In this document: one piece after another, positions 1,261 through 46,251 of the stretch
How positions within the stretch are numbered: the first letter of the stretch is position 1
How the letters are laid out: each line of letters begins with the position of its first letter
Assembly: GCF_004364285.1 (NCBI RefSeq)
Contig: NZ_SOBE01000001.1
Coordinates: forward strand, 930,001 to 994,000
Direction of reading: 5' to 3'
DNA: 64,000 nt
From: Frigoribacterium sp. PhB116
GTDB lineage: Bacteria; Actinomycetota; Actinomycetes; Actinomycetales; Microbacteriaceae
The notes under the pieces: generated by a model
The model's input: the letters and a program-made list of their open reading frames with translations, nothing else
Told to the model about the DNA's origin: nothing
Databases searched by the model: none
Program-made: the position numbers and the translations under genes

Positions 1261-1419
1261 CCCGCGCCGCCCCTCCTCGTTCAGCAACGTCGGTCCTGAT
1301 CCGCGCGACGGGGGGAGGCAGGGTCCTGGATCGTGCACGACTCAAGACCCGGTGCGCCCGAGTTCCTGAGTCCTGGCGACCTGGCCGGGCCCCGGGCCCC
1401 GGGCCCGGGTCGTCGCGCT
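1261..1419. other. Intergenic region with palindromes before the 29-bp repeat
   Basis: No gene is visible between the DUF58 stop and the 29-bp repeat array. The region holds the perfect 10-bp palindrome TCGTGCACGA at 1331-1340, three copies of GTCCTG (near 1292, 1323 and 1370), and ACTCA/TGAGT half-sites about 22 bases apart inside 1339-1371. Its purpose is unknown. Confidence 0.4.
1385..1408. terminator. GC hairpin, possible bidirectional terminator
   Basis: CCGGGCCC (1385-1392) pairs perfectly with GGGCCCGG (1401-1408) across an 8-base loop. It lies between two convergent genes, DUF58 and the SpoIIM-like gene, so it could end transcripts from either side. There is no T-tract, so intrinsic termination is only a guess. 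Confidence 0.35.
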
Positions 1420-1631
1420 CAGCCGGCACAGCGGCCTCCGCTCGCCGTCAGCCGGCACAGCGGCCCCCGCTCGCCGTCAGCCGGCACAGCGGCCCCCGCT
1501 CGCCGTCAGCCGGCACAGCAGACTCCGCTCGCCGTCAGCCGGCACAGCGGCCTCCGCTCGCCGTCAGCCGGCACAGCGGCCTCCACTCGCCGTCAGCCGG
1601 CACAGCAGCCTCCACTCGCCGTCAGCCGGCG
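1420..1631. repeat. 29-bp tandem repeat, 7 full copies plus a partial
   Basis: Seven head-to-tail units start at 1420, 1449, 1478, 1507, 1536, 1565 and 1594, and a partial unit begins at 1623. The unit starts CAGCCGGCACAGCGG and most copies contain the small inverted repeat AGCGG-N3-CCGCT. Copies 4, 6 and 7 have substitutions that weaken this stem. The period is not a multiple of three and no spacers separate the units, so it is neither coding nor a CRISPR. The partial unit carries the TGA stop of the adjacent minus-strand gene, which suggests the array grew by slippage from that gene's 3' end. Confidence 0.95.
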
Positions 1632-38510: not shown

Positions 38511-38555
38511 TGGTTGACTGATCACCGCCTGACGCCCCACCCGAGGAACCCACCC

Positions 38556-39497
38556 GTGAAGCTGTTCATCCAGATCCCCTGCCTCAACGAGGAGGAGACA
38601 CTCCCGTCCGTCCTCGAGAGCATCCCCACCTCCATCCCCGGGATCGACGAGATCCACGTCCTCGTCATCGACGACGGGTCGACGGACCGCACCGTCGAGG
38701 TCGCACGGGCCCACGGGGTCGAGCACGTCGTCCGCCACACGAGCAACATGGGCCTCGCGCGCTCGTTCCGTGACGGGGTCGACTACGCGCTGCTGCACGG
38801 TGCGGACATCGTCGTCAACACCGACGGGGACAACCAGTACCCCCAGTCGCAGATCACCGAGCTCGTCCAGCCCATCCTCGAGGGCAGGGCCGACATCGTC
38901 ATCGGCGACCGACAGACCCGCACCATCGAGCACTTCTCGAAGTTCAAGCGCACGATGCAGGGCCTCGGCAGCTGGGTGGCGAGCCGCGCCGCCGGTCTCG
39001 ACCTGCCCGACGCCGCCAGCGGCTTCCGCGCCTACTCGAAGTACTCGCTGATCCGCCTCAACATCGTCACGCGCTTCAGCTACTGCATGGAGACCATCGT
39101 GCAGGCGGGCTACAAGCGGCTCGCCCTCACCAGCATCCCCATCACGACCAACCCGAAGACCCGCGAGTCGCGGCTGTTCAGCAACATCTGGCAGCACATG
39201 TTCATGTCCGGCTCCGCCATCGTCCGCGTGTACCTGATGTACCGGCCGATGGCGCTCTTCGCGTGGATCAGCGCGGTCCTCCTCGCCGTCGGACTGGTGC
39301 CCTTCGTCCGCTACCTGGTGCTGCTGCAGGTCGACCCGGGCGGGGACCACCTGCAGTCGCTGCTCCTCGGCGTCCTGCTCGTCATCACCGCGTTGCTCTC
39401 CGTCGTGATCGGGGTGGTCGCCGATCTGACGAGGCTGAACAGGACCCTGGCCGAGGAACAGCTCGACCTCCTGAAGCTCCAGCGTTATGGCGACTGA
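38556..39497 (+). CDS. Membrane-anchored GT2 (polyprenyl-phosphate sugar synthase type)
   Basis: A 313-aa enzyme: QIPCLNEEETLPSVL, VIDDGSTDRTVEVA, VNTDGDNQYPQS as the DXD motif and DAASGFRAYSKYSLI. Two hydrophobic helices near residues 235-255 and 270-290 anchor it, and a charged tail follows. It is like dolichyl-phosphate glucose/mannose synthases and would supply a lipid-sugar donor for the two DUF2142-like genes that follow. GAGGAA lies 9 bases before the GTG 38556. The stop overlaps the next ATG by 11 bases. Confidence 0.85.
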   Translation: MKLFIQIPCLNEEETLPSVLESIPTSIPGIDEIHVLVIDDGSTDRTVEVARAHGVEHVVRHTSNMGLARSFRDGVDYALLHGADIVVNTDGDNQYPQSQITELVQPILEGRADIVIGDRQTRTIEHFSKFKRTMQGLGSWVASRAAGLDLPDAASGFRAYSKYSLIRLNIVTRFSYCMETIVQAGYKRLALTSIPITTNPKTRESRLFSNIWQHMFMSGSAIVRVYLMYRPMALFAWISAVLLAVGLVPFVRYLVLLQVDPGGDHLQSLLLGVLLVITALLSVVIGVVADLTRLNRTLAEEQLDLLKLQRYGD

Positions 39498-41025
39498 GAC
39501 AATCTCCGTACCTCAGGTCACCCGGTCGGAGTGGGCGATCCTCTCCTGCGTCACCGCGGCCTTCACTGTGGCCCTCACGCTCTGGGCCCTGCTCACGCCG
39601 ATGTTCCAGGCGCCCGACGAGGTCGTCCACTTCGACGCCGCGGTCCGCGTCGCCGAGGGCGACGGCTGGCCTGCCCCGGGCGAGGCCCTGTTCCGTGCCG
39701 CCTCGCTCGCCGCGCAGGACTCGATCACCACCGTGCCCACGGAAGACCGGTCGAGCTGGGCCGACCTCGAGGCGGCGCACCCCGGGACGACGACCGACGT
39801 CAACCAGATGACGCAGCACCCGCCGACCTACTACCTCCTCGCGGGCGCCGTCCTCGACGCCGTCGACTTCACCCAGCACCGCTGGGACGCCGGAGTCCTC
39901 GCCCTCCGCCTCCTCGACGTCGTCCTCGTCGCCCCGCTCCCCCTCCTCACCTGGGCCACCGTCCGACGCCTCACCCGCTCCCCCCGCACCGCCCTCGTCG
40001 CCGCCACCGCCCTCTTCGCCGTCCCCCAGCTCGCCCAGATCGGCGCCTCCGTCACCAACGACGCCCCCGTGATCCTGCTCGGCGGCGTGGTCGTCTGGCT
40101 CACCACCCGCGTCCTCACCGGCGACCGCACCTGGCGCACCACCCTCCTCCTCGGCGCCGCCCTCGGCCTCATGCTCGCCGTCAAGGGCACCGCCTTCCCC
40201 GCCGTCCCCTTCGTCGCCCTCGCCGTCCTCCTCGGAGGCGCCAGCACCGTCCCCCTCCGCACCCGCCTCCTGCAGACCCTCGGCACCGGCGCCGTCACCG
40301 CCGCCCTCGGCGCCTGGTGGTGGATCGGCAACCTCGTCCGCTACGGCACCCTCCAGCCCAACGGGCTCCCGAGGTCGTTCACCCCCGTCCCGTGGCCGGA
40401 AGGCGAGGGCCCGAACGCGGGCGCGTTCGTGAACACCGAGTGGAACCGCCTCTCAGCGTCGTTCTGGGGCCAGTTCGGCCGCCTCGAGTTCGCCATGACG
40501 CCGATCCTCACCGACCTGCTGACGGTCTCGTGCCTCCTGTTCGTGGTGTGGTCCGCGTTCCGTCCCGGCCCTCGTCGGCGCATCGCCTGGGTGCTCGCGT
40601 CCTTCCCCCTCCTCACCCTCCTCGTGCTGCTCCAGAACAACTGGTCCTCGTACGAGCGCACCCAGGAGATCTCCGGCGCGCAGGGCCGCTACTTCTTCGG
40701 AGCGCTCGTCGCGCTGGTGGCCCTCGCCGCCCTCGGCGCCCTGACCGCGATCGACTCCCCCGTGACGAGGAGGCGGCTCGCCCGTGTGGTCCTCGTCGCC
40801 TCCCCCGTCATCGGCGTCTACGGCTTCTCCGTCGCGTACCGCGGGTTCTTCGAGGGGACGGACCTCGAGATCACCGGCCCCGGCGTCTCGAACCTGCTCG
40901 TGACGACCCCTGCCGGCGGCGGCGTCTTCACCGTCCTCGTCGTCCTGCTCGCCGTGACGGCCCTCGCGGCCGTCGTCGGCACGTGGCGGACGCTCTCCCC
41001 CGTCGGGAAGGAACCCCGTGCCTGA
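39487..41025 (+). CDS. DUF2142-like polytopic membrane protein 1
   Basis: A 512-aa protein with about 11-12 membrane segments. The first extracytoplasmic loop has TPMFQAPDEVVHFDAAVRV, and the next has MTQHPPTYYLLAG; such acidic and His residues are characteristic of GT-C-fold enzymes that use polyprenyl-phosphate sugars. It forms a tandem pair with the next gene, and the two align without gaps from their start codons. Residues 105-294 are encoded by a 571-bp tract identical in both genes, with third positions overwhelmingly C, unlike the flanks. Confidence 0.75.
   Translation: MATETISVPQVTRSEWAILSCVTAAFTVALTLWALLTPMFQAPDEVVHFDAAVRVAEGDGWPAPGEALFRAASLAAQDSITTVPTEDRSSWADLEAAHPGTTTDVNQMTQHPPTYYLLAGAVLDAVDFTQHRWDAGVLALRLLDVVLVAPLPLLTWATVRRLTRSPRTALVAATALFAVPQLAQIGASVTNDAPVILLGGVVVWLTTRVLTGDRTWRTTLLLGAALGLMLAVKGTAFPAVPFVALAVLLGGASTVPLRTRLLQTLGTGAVTAALGAWWWIGNLVRYGTLQPNGLPRSFTPVPWPEGEGPNAGAFVNTEWNRLSASFWGQFGRLEFAMTPILTDLLTVSCLLFVVWSAFRPGPRRRIAWVLASFPLLTLLVLLQNNWSSYERTQEISGAQGRYFFGALVALVALAALGALTAIDSPVTRRRLARVVLVASPVIGVYGFSVAYRGFFEGTDLEITGPGVSNLLVTTPAGGGVFTVLVVLLAVTALAAVVGTWRTLSPVGKEPRA
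39798..40368 (+). repeat. 571-bp exact direct repeat, copy 1
   Basis: Compared base by base with 41329-41899, it is identical throughout, at a constant offset of 1531 bases. The matching stops at both ends with single mismatches followed by strong divergence. It lies wholly inside the first DUF2142-like gene. Confidence 0.97.
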
Positions 41026-42601
41026 GACCTCGTCGACGCCTCCGCCCGTGCGGCGCCGGGAGGCGGTGTCCGTCGCGGTGGTCACCGCTGCCTTCGGCCT
41101 GTTGCTGACCCTGTGGGCCGTCATGACCCCGATGTTCCAGGCACCGGACGAGTTCACCCACTGGGACGCCAGCGTCCGGGTCGCGCTCGACGAGGGCTGG
41201 CCCCCTCCCGGTGAGGCCCTGAACATCGCGGCGGCCCAGGCCGCCCAGGTGACGAACTTCACGATCCCGCCGGCGGAACGGCCGACCTTCGGGGCCCTGC
41301 AGGAGCAGGCGCCGGGGTACCACGACTTCGTCAACCAGATGACGCAGCACCCGCCGACCTACTACCTCCTCGCGGGCGCCGTCCTCGACGCCGTCGACTT
41401 CACCCAGCACCGCTGGGACGCCGGAGTCCTCGCCCTCCGCCTCCTCGACGTCGTCCTCGTCGCCCCGCTCCCCCTCCTCACCTGGGCCACCGTCCGACGC
41501 CTCACCCGCTCCCCCCGCACCGCCCTCGTCGCCGCCACCGCCCTCTTCGCCGTCCCCCAGCTCGCCCAGATCGGCGCCTCCGTCACCAACGACGCCCCCG
41601 TGATCCTGCTCGGCGGCGTGGTCGTCTGGCTCACCACCCGCGTCCTCACCGGCGACCGCACCTGGCGCACCACCCTCCTCCTCGGCGCCGCCCTCGGCCT
41701 CATGCTCGCCGTCAAGGGCACCGCCTTCCCCGCCGTCCCCTTCGTCGCCCTCGCCGTCCTCCTCGGAGGCGCCAGCACCGTCCCCCTCCGCACCCGCCTC
41801 CTGCAGACCCTCGGCACCGGCGCCGTCACCGCCGCCCTCGGCGCCTGGTGGTGGATCGGCAACCTCGTCCGCTACGGCACCCTCCAGCCCAACGGGCTCG
41901 CGGACGAACGCCCCCCGGCGCCGTGGCCCGCCGGCGAGGGCCCGAACGCCGGGCTCTTCTTCAACACGTTCTGGGACGGGGTGACGTCGTCCTTCTGGGG
42001 CCAGTTCGGCCGGGCCCAGTACCCGGTCAGCCCCGTCGTCAGCGACGTCCTGACGGTCGGCGCGCTGCTGCTGGTCGGCGTGTTCGCCTACCGTGCCCGC
42101 GGCACGCGCCGTGCCGCGCTGCTCCTGACCGTGCTCCCCGTGGTCATCGCCGTGGTGATGCTCGCCAACGGCTGGAACACCTACGACGAGACACAAGGCG
42201 TCTACGGCACGCAGGGGCGCTACTTCTACCCCTCGCTCGTCGCCCTGGTCGCCCTCTCCGCGATCGCGGCGACAGCGCTGCTCGCGCCGGGCGCACCACG
42301 TCGCCGTGCGGCCGTCGCCGTCGCCGTGGGCGCCCCCCTGCTCGCCCTCTACGGCCTCTCGGTGGCCTACCGCGGGTTCTTCGAGGGCTTCGACCTCGCC
42401 GTCACCGAGCAGGGTCTGCGCGAGCTCGCAGGTTCGCTGCCCGTGGGGAGGCCGGAGTTCGTCGTGCTCGCGCTGGCGACGCTCGCAGGCCTCGTCGCCG
42501 TCGCCGTGCTGACGGCGCGGGTCCGCGACCGCCCGGAGCTCACGACCGACGACGCCGCAGTGCCTCCTGCACGCCCCGTCGAGACGAGCCGCCAGCCATG
42601 A
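41018..42601 (+). CDS. DUF2142-like polytopic membrane protein 2
   Basis: A 527-aa paralogue with the same design: TPMFQAPDEFTHWDASVRV then MTQHPPTYYLLAG. The GTG start follows GGGAAGGAA and overlaps the stop of copy 1. Outside the shared tract the two proteins are clearly related but much changed, so they likely act on different substrates. Its 3' end overlaps the convergent GT4 gene by 62 bases. Confidence 0.75.
   Translation: MPETSSTPPPVRRREAVSVAVVTAAFGLLLTLWAVMTPMFQAPDEFTHWDASVRVALDEGWPPPGEALNIAAAQAAQVTNFTIPPAERPTFGALQEQAPGYHDFVNQMTQHPPTYYLLAGAVLDAVDFTQHRWDAGVLALRLLDVVLVAPLPLLTWATVRRLTRSPRTALVAATALFAVPQLAQIGASVTNDAPVILLGGVVVWLTTRVLTGDRTWRTTLLLGAALGLMLAVKGTAFPAVPFVALAVLLGGASTVPLRTRLLQTLGTGAVTAALGAWWWIGNLVRYGTLQPNGLADERPPAPWPAGEGPNAGLFFNTFWDGVTSSFWGQFGRAQYPVSPVVSDVLTVGALLLVGVFAYRARGTRRAALLLTVLPVVIAVVMLANGWNTYDETQGVYGTQGRYFYPSLVALVALSAIAATALLAPGAPRRRAAVAVAVGAPLLALYGLSVAYRGFFEGFDLAVTEQGLRELAGSLPVGRPEFVVLALATLAGLVAVAVLTARVRDRPELTTDDAAVPPARPVETSRQP
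41329..41899 (+). repeat. 571-bp exact direct repeat, copy 2
   Basis: The second copy of the tract at 39798-40368, in the same frame of the second gene. See that entry. Confidence 0.97.
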
Positions 42602-43765: not shown

Positions 43766-44743
43766 ATGAACGACCCCGTGCCCCCCGGCGCACGCGCCCG
43801 CCGGAGCAGAGGACGCGTGCTCCGCACAGCGCTCGTCGTGGTCGCGCTCGCGCTCTGCGTCGTGTTCCTCGCCCCCAGGGCAGGCGAGATCGTCGCCTCC
43901 TTCGGCCGCCAGGACGCCGGCACCGTGTTCGGCGCGCTGCTGCTGGGCGCCCTCGCCACCTACGCGACGTTCCTCTCCTGGCGGGCCCTCCTCGCGGGCG
44001 CCGGCCACCGCCTCCCCCTGGCGGCCGGTCAGCGGCTCTTCTTCGTCTCACAGATCGGCAAGTACGTGCCGGGCTCGATCTGGCCGATCGTGGCCCAGGC
44101 CGATCTCGGCCGACGCCACGGCGTGCCCGCCTCGCGTTCCGTGACCGTGGGGCTGCTGACGCTCCTCGTGAGCTGCGCGGCTGGTGTCTGCACAGCCGCG
44201 GCGACCCTCCCCTTCGTCCTGTCCAGCGCGCTGCAGCAGTACTGGTTCGTCGTCCTGTTCATCCCGGTCGTCCTGGTCGCGCTGCACCCGGCGGTCCTCC
44301 GGTTCGCCCTGCGGACGGCATCGAAGCTGCTGCGGCGTGACCTCGCCGAGGTCGCGATCCCCCTCGGGGCCGTGGTGCGGGCGTTCCTCCTCGCGGTCGT
44401 CGCCTGGCTGCTCTTCGGCCTGCACGTCGCGGTCCTCGGCTCCGCCCTGGTCGAGACCTCCCCCGGCCAGGTCGTGCTCGCGACCGGCGCCTACGCCCTC
44501 GCCTGGCTCGTCGGCTTCGCCATCTTCTTCCTCCCCGCTGGGCTCGGCGGCCGGGAGGCCGTCCTGACGACCGTCCTGGCCGCGGGCTCGGCCCTCGACC
44601 TCGAGGCGGCCGTCAGCATGGCCCTCGCCTCACGGGTCCTGCTCAGCGTCGTGGATGTCGCTGCGTTCGGGGCGACGAGCCTGATCGGGCGTCGGCGACG
44701 AGCCGCGCTCGACGTGCACGACGACGAGAGGACGGCCCGCTGA
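43766..44743 (+). CDS. Lysylphosphatidylglycerol synthase transmembrane-type protein (AglD/UPF0104-like)
   Basis: A 325-aa polytopic protein with 7-8 hydrophobic segments. FFVSQIGKYVPGSIWPIVAQ and LVGFAIFFLPAGLGGREAVL are signatures of the flippase-like UPF0104 family. Family members include transport or glycosyl/aminoacyl-lipid proteins of the envelope; here it most likely helps with lipid-linked sugar. ATG 43766 is chosen; GACTCT is 8 bases upstream. It overlaps the next start by one base (TGATG). Confidence 0.78.
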   Translation: MNDPVPPGARARRSRGRVLRTALVVVALALCVVFLAPRAGEIVASFGRQDAGTVFGALLLGALATYATFLSWRALLAGAGHRLPLAAGQRLFFVSQIGKYVPGSIWPIVAQADLGRRHGVPASRSVTVGLLTLLVSCAAGVCTAAATLPFVLSSALQQYWFVVLFIPVVLVALHPAVLRFALRTASKLLRRDLAEVAIPLGAVVRAFLLAVVAWLLFGLHVAVLGSALVETSPGQVVLATGAYALAWLVGFAIFFLPAGLGGREAVLTTVLAAGSALDLEAAVSMALASRVLLSVVDVAAFGATSLIGRRRRAALDVHDDERTAR

Positions 44744-46251
44744 TGAGCGAGACCGACACGCGCCCGGAGGCGGCGCCCGAGACTGCCCGACGCGAACCCG
44801 CCGTCAGGTGGTCGCCGCGTCGGCGGCGTCCCGACCTGGTCGTCCTCGTGGCCGCCGTGCTGTTCACCGTGACGGTCTCCGTCGTCCGGGCCTTCACGAC
44901 GCCGCTGCTCGCCACGGCCGACGAGACCGCGCACCTCGACTACGCCCTCCAGCTCTGGCACGGGGCGCTGCCCGTCTTCGAGGACGGCGTGCGGCTCGTC
45001 CAGCCGTGGGGCCCCGTGCCGCCGGTGCAGTGGGTCGCGCAGCACCCGCCGCTGTTCTACGCGCTCCTCGCGCCCCTCGTCGGCACGCTCGCCGACAGCG
45101 GCCACCTCTACACGGCCGTCCTGGCCGGCCGGGCCGCCAACGCGCTCCTCGCGGGCGCGACCGTCCTCGCCGTGTGGTGGGCGGCCCGTCAGATCTTCCG
45201 CCGCGACCGTGCGATCGCGGCGGTCGCCGCCGTCGTGACCTCGATGACCGGCATGCTCGTCCTGGTGGCGGGCTCCATCTACAACGACCTGCTGACCGTG
45301 GTCTTCGCGGCGCTGGCCGTCGGCATGTCGGCCAGGTTCGTCCGCGAAGGCGTCACACCCGTGTCGGCCGTGGTGGCGGTCCTCGTCTGCACCGGCGGGC
45401 TCGCCAGCCGGGCGTCCTTCGTCGTGTTCCTCGCCGCCGTGCTCGGCGGCGTCCTGGTCGCCCGCCGGAGGTCGAGGCTGCGGCGCGACGTGCTCGCGCG
45501 GGTCGCGACGGCCGTCGCCGCGATCGCCGTCCCCCTCGCGGCCGTCGGGTGGTTCTACGCGCGGAACCTCGCGCTGACCGGGTCCGTCACAGGAGGCCAC
45601 CCCGAGTGGGCCGCCGCTAACCTGGGCCGGAACACCCACACCGTGGTCGAGGTCGTCCAGGCGCCCACGTTCTGGACCGGTCTCTTCTCGCTGTACCGCT
45701 ACGACGTCGACCGGAGCGTGCCGTGGCCGTGGGCGGCGCTGCTCGGCCCCCTGGCCGTCGCCCTCGTCGGCGCCCTCGTGCTGGTCGTGCGACGTCGGCT
45801 CCGGCCGAGCCGGCCCGACCTGCTCGTCGCGCTGATGCTCCTCGCGGTGACCGGGCTCACGATCGGCATGCAGCTCGCCTTCGTGGCCGGCGGCGGCGCG
45901 CCGAACACGCGGTACTCGCTGCCGCTCCTCGCCGTGCTCGCCCCTCTGATGGCCTGGGGTCTGACGCGCGGGGGCAGGGCGGGCGTCGTCCTGGTCGTGG
46001 CCTGGACGGCGGGCGTCTTCGTGGCGTGCCTGTCCGCGCTCGACCTCGTGACGCCGGTCGGCCCGCAGGTCGTGCTCGACGTCGCGCGGGTCCTCTTCGC
46101 CGTGTCGGTCCTCGCGGGCGTGGTGTTCCTCGCGGCCGTCGCGGTGCTGCTCACCCGCGGCCCCCGCTGGTCTCCCGACGACCTCAGCGCGCCGGACTCT
46201 CACGGGCAGCGCGGACGACGTCGTCGAGGAGCACCTGCGCCCTCGCCGTGA
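44743..46251 (+). CDS. GT-C/DUF2142-like polytopic membrane protein
   Basis: A 502-aa protein with about 11 membrane segments. The first loop has LLATADETAHLDYALQL and the second QHPPLFYALL, the same acidic and His-Pro-Pro pattern as the tandem pair at 39-42 kb but without their conserved middle. It is co-transcribed with the UPF0104-like gene. Its last 68 bases overlap the convergent 656-aa glycosyltransferase gene. A glycosyltransferase role is inferred from the pattern only. Confidence 0.65.
   Translation: MSETDTRPEAAPETARREPAVRWSPRRRRPDLVVLVAAVLFTVTVSVVRAFTTPLLATADETAHLDYALQLWHGALPVFEDGVRLVQPWGPVPPVQWVAQHPPLFYALLAPLVGTLADSGHLYTAVLAGRAANALLAGATVLAVWWAARQIFRRDRAIAAVAAVVTSMTGMLVLVAGSIYNDLLTVVFAALAVGMSARFVREGVTPVSAVVAVLVCTGGLASRASFVVFLAAVLGGVLVARRRSRLRRDVLARVATAVAAIAVPLAAVGWFYARNLALTGSVTGGHPEWAAANLGRNTHTVVEVVQAPTFWTGLFSLYRYDVDRSVPWPWAALLGPLAVALVGALVLVVRRRLRPSRPDLLVALMLLAVTGLTIGMQLAFVAGGGAPNTRYSLPLLAVLAPLMAWGLTRGGRAGVVLVVAWTAGVFVACLSALDLVTPVGPQVVLDVARVLFAVSVLAGVVFLAAVAVLLTRGPRWSPDDLSAPDSHGQRGRRRRGAPAPSP

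What the first reader, a model, noticed from the sequence alone, without database searches (positions are those of the whole stretch)
39798..41899. 571-bp perfectly identical tract shared by two divergent tandem DUF2142-like genes
Line-by-line comparison shows 39798-40368 and 41329-41899 are identical over all 571 bases at an offset of 1531. The start codons are separated by exactly the same offset, so the genes align without gaps, yet sequence on either side has diverged strongly. Third codon positions in the tract are nearly all C, unlike the mixed C/G of the flanks. This suggests a recent gene conversion, possibly with a third donor sequence. The tract covers part of the membrane core right after the acidic loop.
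Basis: seen in the sequence. Interest (0 to 1): 0.7.

Follow-up and report, generated by a model that had tools for sequence, protein, structure and literature searches.

The report
Two diverged genes sharing one core
Two neighbouring genes for sugar-transferring membrane enzymes in a bacterium have drifted far apart except for a 571-letter middle piece that seems to be copied from one gene to the other again and again, with nearly the same edges in a related species and an odd one-strand excess of the letters A and C.

Summary
It is not one recent event. In Frigoribacterium sp. PhB160 the orthologous pair has a 567-base identical tract with the same left edge and a right edge one base shorter, although the two species' tracts differ from each other at 12.8% of bases. 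In a metagenomic pair (P0001/P0003), both copies share all 7 residue changes that set their tract off from the window's. Flank trees group A with A and B with B; tract trees group by genome. So conversion confined to the core has recurred in at least three lineages. A third donor is neither needed nor found. The C bias is real and odder than stated: inside the tract the coding strand is poor in G and T but not in A, beyond 339 other sampled genes and unlike genes of the ribosomal region. A speculative cause (odds 0.2) is editing by NucS during one-sided strand invasion. New variant of a known kind.

The parts
39487..41025 (+). Gene A: 512-aa DUF2142/PMT_2 membrane protein, GT-C fold predicted
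41018..42601 (+). Gene B: 527-aa tandem paralogue, overlapping the end of A by 8 bases
   Evidence: ORF; Pfam DUF2142 55.7 bits, PMT_2 49.4 bits. Not modelled separately.
39798..40368 (+). Homogenised tract, copy in A (codons 105-294)
   Evidence: 571/571 identical to copy in B; same block identical within PhB160 and, as protein, within the P0001/P0003 pair
41329..41899 (+). Homogenised tract, copy in B (codons 105-294)
   Evidence: as above
39826..40368 (+). A/C-rich zone of the tract in A (codons 114-294); the 28 bases before it belong to the tract but are not C-rich
   Evidence: third-base listing, four-fold sites
41357..41899 (+). A/C-rich zone of the tract in B
   Evidence: as above
39487..39797 (+). 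Diverged 5' flank of A (first membrane helix and first outer loop with the PDE motif)
   Evidence: 58.6% identical to B; groups with the A-type relatives in the flank tree, both flanks together
40369..41022 (+). Diverged 3' flank of A (later helices and C-terminus)
   Evidence: 58.0% identical to B; flank tree
41018..41328 (+). Diverged 5' flank of B
41900..42598 (+). Diverged 3' flank of B
38514..39497 (+). GT2 glycosyltransferase gene just upstream, overlapping the start of A by 11 bases
   Evidence: Pfam Glycos_transf_2 81.4 bits; operon-like context, inferred

Best explanation
A and B are old tandem paralogues of a GT-C glycosyltransferase in a surface-polysaccharide-type locus. Their central membrane core (codons 105-294) is copied between the two genes by recurrent gene conversion, so a new mutation in the core ends up in both genes or in neither, while the first outer loop and the C-terminal part keep diverging. 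Shown: identity of the core within three lineages whose cores differ from each other; opposite tree groupings for core and flanks; the same left edge and a right edge one base apart in two species; an A/C excess on the coding strand confined to the core. Inferred: the copying is RecA-type recombination; the edges hold because recombination fails where identity drops to about 58%, helped by NucS; the common core serves a common lipid-linked sugar donor and the unlike parts set acceptor choice. The cause of the A/C excess is open; I favour NucS editing of one preferred invading strand at odds of about 0.2. The confidence below is for recurrent, core-limited gene conversion, not for the inferred steps.
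For: 571/571 identity with 58% flanks. PhB160: 567-base identical tract at the same columns, a 3-base gap present in both its copies, identity to the window's tract 0.872. JGI pair: 0 of 190 residues differ within the pair; all 7 residues that differ from the window are shared by both copies, while flanks differ at 13 and 17 residues. Flank tree groups 4 A and 3 B proteins, each as one side of a branch, support at least 99/99; tract tree groups by genome; holding the window and JGI pairs together in the flank tree costs 78.3 log units, p-AU 3.3e-12. Of 15 same-locus pairs, 12 show longest matches of only 13-22 bases, so identity of the core is not a general property of the family. Near the right edge, codons CAG/CAA and GGG/GGA differ between the species but agree within each. 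Both genomes have NucS and no MutS domain V match; in M. smegmatis recombination falls from 2.42e-6 at 100% to 6.47e-9 at 85% identity in the wild type (PMC5290159, passages).
Against: No reads checked. The JGI pair is known only as proteins, and that both lie on one contig is inferred from the equal contig length (40,432) and source. The left edge sits at a conserved protein motif, so part of its sharpness may be protein conservation. The tract is less diverged between the species than flanks and neighbours (composition-corrected 0.7-1.0 against 2.4-2.9 in the flanks and 1.6-3.0, two values saturated, in six neighbouring genes), so exchange of the tract between lineages or codon constraint may also play a part.
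Confidence: 0.92

Rival explanations
1. A single recent conversion, the tract coming from a third donor that uses mostly C-ending codons.
For: The tract's codon use is unlike the rest of the sampled genome. The tract is less diverged between species than the flanks. A relic could decay slowly: at 121 degenerate sites with the same residue, 12 differ between the species and 8 are non-C in both.
Against: Three lineages are homogenised separately. No third copy in the genome; no non-Frigoribacterium sequence close to the tract in the tree. PhB160 has higher A/C at positions 1 and 2 than the window (1.085 against 0.979), which a plain relic does not predict.
Confidence: 0.1
2. Assembly artefact: one core was collapsed and written twice.
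For: A 571-base repeat is longer than short reads; no reads were available.
Against: PhB160, a separate assembly in a 1.9-Mb contig, has the same edges with a different tract sequence, and a metagenomic pair agrees at protein level.
Confidence: 0.03
3. Selection on the core sequence itself (codon use, or an RNA or DNA signal such as a C-rich, G-poor Rho-binding stretch) keeps the copies alike and makes the composition odd.
For: C-rich, G-poor RNA is what Rho binds (recalled). The composition is kept in both species.
Against: Selection alone does not make 571 of 571 bases equal, including rare codons and a shared gap. The codon use is not that of the ribosomal-region genes, which use GGT 0.19 and CGT 0.23, both absent from the tract. 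Unconverted relatives lack the bias in the same region. A-ending codons are not depleted: 10 of 296 against 1.5 expected if C alone were favoured. As the cause of the composition only, selection is not excluded.
Confidence: 0.05
4. Independent tandem duplications in each lineage.
For: Paralogues are alike within each genome in the core.
Against: Flanks group A with A and B with B across lineages (p-AU 3.3e-12), so the pair is older than the split.
Confidence: 0.01

Closest known systems
mtrA-1/mtrA-2 of methanogens (PMC4632066; abstract, opening and passages seen)
   Same: Tandem paralogues, one domain homogenised by long-lasting conversion while another part of the gene differs.
   Different: There the unlike part came from domain shuffling and gene fusion; here both flanks are homologous and diverged. 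A search of that paper for 'GC content', 'boundary' and 'tract' found none, and 'codon' once.
Long-lasting concerted evolution in prokaryotes, 26 genes including tuf (PMC6053082; abstract, outline and sections 6 and 11 read)
   Same: Recurrent conversion within species at synonymous and non-synonymous sites.
   Different: That study covers conversion over the full gene length and names partial cases as future work.
Gene conversion in paralogous regions of M. tuberculosis (PMC13061034, preprint; passages seen)
   Same: NucS-type organism; conversion between paralogues with a shifted substitution pattern (T>C/A>G enriched).
   Different: Median tract 101 bp; its authors suggest reduced NucS action during recombination, which is not what my novel reading supposes; the passages seen describe no strand-specific skew.
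GT-C glycosyltransferases such as ArnT, Pmt4 and AftB
   Different: No PDB sequence relative at E up to 0.1 with a 72-sequence profile; substrates unknown.

Membership tests
Concerted evolution by gene conversion | Paralogues within a genome more alike than orthologues between genomes, at synonymous sites too | tested here: met
   Tract 571/571 and 567-base identity within the genomes, 0.872 between them; trees
Concerted evolution by gene conversion | Duplication older than the split of the lineages | tested here: met
   Flank tree groups A and B across lineages, p-AU 3.3e-12; same gene order around the pair
Concerted evolution by gene conversion | Non-reciprocal copying seen as events in related cells | not testable with these tools
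   No population data or reads
Long-lasting full-length concerted evolution (as in PMC6053082) | Homogenisation over nearly the whole gene | tested here: not met
   Flanks about 58% identical
GT-C glycosyltransferases | GT-C fold | tested here: met
   Model of A. B not modelled; 66% identical to A over the whole length
GT-C glycosyltransferases | Transfer of a sugar from a lipid-linked donor | not testable with these tools
   No assay
DUF2142 (PF09913) | Score above the curated cut-off | tested here: met
   56.9 and 55.7 bits against 30.1
NucS-edited, strand-polar conversion (proposed) | G and T, but not A, depleted on one strand of the converted block | tested here: met
NucS-edited, strand-polar conversion (proposed) | NucS present, MutS absent | tested here: met
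   2 of 2 genomes NucS, 0 of 2 MutS domain V; MutL not searched
NucS-edited, strand-polar conversion (proposed) | Same skew in other recurrently converted blocks | tested here: inconclusive
   No second converted pair in 704 kb of the genome
NucS-edited, strand-polar conversion (proposed) | One strand preferred as invading strand | not testable with these tools
   Local strand composition gives no fork direction

The most novel reading that the evidence does not exclude
Recurrent conversion here is strand-polar and edited by NucS. The coding strand is usually the invading strand; a G or T on it that meets a G or T is removed, while A and C pass unrepaired, so over time the converted block loses G and T on that strand at all codon positions. 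This would be a strand-asymmetric biased gene conversion peculiar to NucS organisms, readable as an A/C skew wherever one block is converted over and over from the same side.
Probability: 0.2. Interest if true: 0.8.

Novelty: new variant of a known kind. Interest (0 to 1): 0.6.

Why it matters
It is a natural case in which two diverged genes are held together over one internal block, with edges that stay put between species: a clean system for asking what stops conversion at a homology border. The strand-specific loss of G and T inside the block matches the mismatch range reported for NucS, so it makes testable whether this alternative mismatch repair biases the outcome of recombination in Actinobacteria. 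It also warns that extreme codon bias in such a tract need not mean high expression or foreign origin.

Tried and rejected
Third donor: no third copy in the genome and no close relative of the tract outside the Frigoribacterium-type copies. Translation optimum: compared with called genes of a 20-kb ribosomal region; not supported. Other one-parameter biases (C alone favoured, G alone disfavoured, G,C over A,T, pyrimidines) fit worse than A,C over G,T. In the window alone the gain over C-alone is small (-52.74 against -54.65); in PhB160 larger (-65.28 against -74.98, and -72.64 for G alone). The two tracts share ancestry, so the joint figure overstates independence. Replication-strand skew: four-fold composition of + and - strand genes near the window is nearly the same, so it neither explains the tract nor tells fork direction.

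Antisense coding as the reason for the third-base bias: differences between the species fall on codon positions 1, 2, 3 as 29, 25, 18, which points to no single antisense frame. pN above pS in the tract (0.138 against 0.101) first looked like positive selection; after allowing for the extreme codon composition no such reading is needed.

A control that weakens one point: polarised first- and second-position changes in the tract are 30 from G/T to A/C against 6 the other way (flanks 93:80, Fisher p 0.0013; stem 18:6 against 22:23, p 0.044). Unconverted relatives also lean that way in this region: of 64 control pairs with at least 10 changes, which are not independent, the highest share is 0.81 against 0.83 here. 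So this is weak support only. The second tree test, setting the JGI copies apart in the tract tree, was rejected only at p 0.044.

Rows left out: one search took 28 sources and 42 genes; second fetches of the same places (L010, L012, L013 for L026; L015, L022 for L030) and L025 were left out, and a 376-base match in L039 was set aside because the two called ORFs overlap. One search used 13 of those 42 genes and 7 of the protein hits; the structure alignment used 70 of the 131 protein hits plus A and B. In one search two neighbouring genes were dropped because my coordinates gave stops. PhB160's gene B does not appear in the lists, probably because my ORF filter lost it. Searches in the held paper library listed no title or abstract on a strand-polar NucS bias in gene conversion; most hits I saw only as listings.

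Full report
What was checked. The two stretches are identical over 571 of 571 bases at offset 1531, with exact ends at 39798 and 40368. The genes are A (39487-41025) and B (41018-42601), overlapping by 8 bases. Both score above the Pfam cut-offs for DUF2142 and PMT_2. The own genome has no third copy, and in the 704 kb examined no other exact direct repeat is longer than 73 bases.

Where it lies. A search of 16 genomes of the genus found the protein in 2: the own one and G010. In the family, 9 of 249 genomes match at E up to 1e-40. The locus holds an ABC-exporter permease (Wzm-like, below the curated cut-offs), a GT2 enzyme and further membrane proteins. DNA similarity to PhB160 runs in the same order from 27340 to 54122, apart from cross-matches within the pair and two short off-line pieces.

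The key result. In PhB160 the orthologous pair also has a long identical tract, 567 bases, at the same alignment columns: same left edge, right edge one base shorter. The two species' tracts differ from each other (identity 0.872), and a 3-base gap in PhB160 is present in both of its copies. Of 15 same-locus pairs, 2 have tracts over 500 bases, 12 have longest matches of 13-22 bases, and one (376) is an artefact of overlapping ORF calls. A metagenomic A-type and B-type protein are each listed with one contig of 40,432 bases from the same source, so probably the same contig. Their tracts do not differ from each other over 190 residues; all 7 residues that differ from the window's tract are shared by both, while their flanks differ from the window's at 13 and 17 residues.

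Trees. With 20 proteins, the flank tree puts the four A and the three B proteins each on one side of a branch with support of at least 99/99, and the tract tree groups by genome. Holding the window and JGI pairs together in the flank tree costs 78.3 log units (p-AU 3.3e-12). So the duplication is older than the split, and the core has been homogenised since, separately in each lineage.

Edges. The left edge falls at a conserved motif (VNQMTQHPPTYY) and the right edge just after TLQPNGL, so part of the sharpness may be protein conservation. Near the right edge, codons CAG/CAA and GGG/GGA differ between the species but agree within each, so homogenisation reaches within a few bases of it. In M. 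smegmatis wild type, recombination falls from 2.42e-6 at full identity to 6.47e-9 at 85%, and without NucS it is 3- to 10-fold higher at 85-95% (PMC5290159, passages). Flanks at 58% should hardly recombine. That NucS and RecA act so here is inference; NucS was found in 2 of 2 genomes and MutS domain V in 0 of 2.

The composition. At four-fold sites the tract reads A 3, C 137, G 10, T 0 of 150 in the window and A 7, C 129, G 10, T 0 of 146 in PhB160's A. The flanks of the four genes pool to A 0.022, C 0.559, G 0.383, T 0.036 of 961; the same region in 38 genes of other genera pools to C 0.50, G 0.44 of 5470. Among 342 called genes with enough sites, the three that hold the tract reach 0.945-0.952 A+C; the other 339 peak at 0.795. 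Called genes of the ribosomal region do not use such codons. A one-parameter model in which A and C beat G and T has lnL -118.0, against -130.0 (C alone), -133.0 (G alone disfavoured), -144.2 (pyrimidines), -210.4 (G,C over A,T) and -116.2 for the free fit. At codon positions 1 and 2 the four Frigoribacterium rows have the highest A/C of 42 genes (1.085 and 0.979; others mean 0.884, sd 0.033, highest 0.958). Polarised changes at those positions are 30:6, but a control shows that the region leans that way elsewhere too, up to 0.81.

A possible cause. In M. smegmatis, oligonucleotides making G-G, G-T or T-T mismatches gave recombinants more than 500-fold less often than those making the other mismatches tested, and this needed NucS (PMC11551767, section 14; review PMC8228993, passages). 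If the coding strand is mostly the incoming strand, it would lose G and T and keep A and C, which is the pattern seen. Polarity is not shown, only one locus is known, and a preprint on M. tuberculosis suggests reduced NucS action during recombination (PMC13061034, passages). I rate this at 0.2.

What is known. Domain-limited conversion in tandem genes is known for mtrA (PMC4632066), and full-length concerted evolution for 26 genes in a study that names partial cases as future work (PMC6053082). This case adds an internal block with edges conserved between species and a strand-specific composition. I rate it a new variant of a known kind.

Noticed in passing
window 1419-1630: Tandem array of 7.3 copies of a 29-base unit, 95% matches; the period is not a multiple of three and long ORFs run over it on both strands.
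   Followed up: partly
window 44743-46251: A further PMT_2-like membrane protein (25.4 bits, just under the Pfam cut-off of 26.1) close to the pair; it is not part of the homogenised pair.
   Followed up: no
P0002 and P0114 (protein hits): P0002 is an A-type protein close to PhB160's A with 4 residue differences in the tract; its B partner was not identified. P0114 begins like PhB160's B and then reads as if out of frame from about residue 213.
   Followed up: no
L076 13329-13401 and 13399-13471 (own genome): Exact 73-base direct repeat with a 70-base offset, the only other exact repeat over 60 bases in the 704 kb sampled.
   Followed up: no
L026 and window, 14 other genomes of the genus: The gene pair is patchy: 14 of 16 genomes of the genus searched have no match to A.
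   Followed up: no
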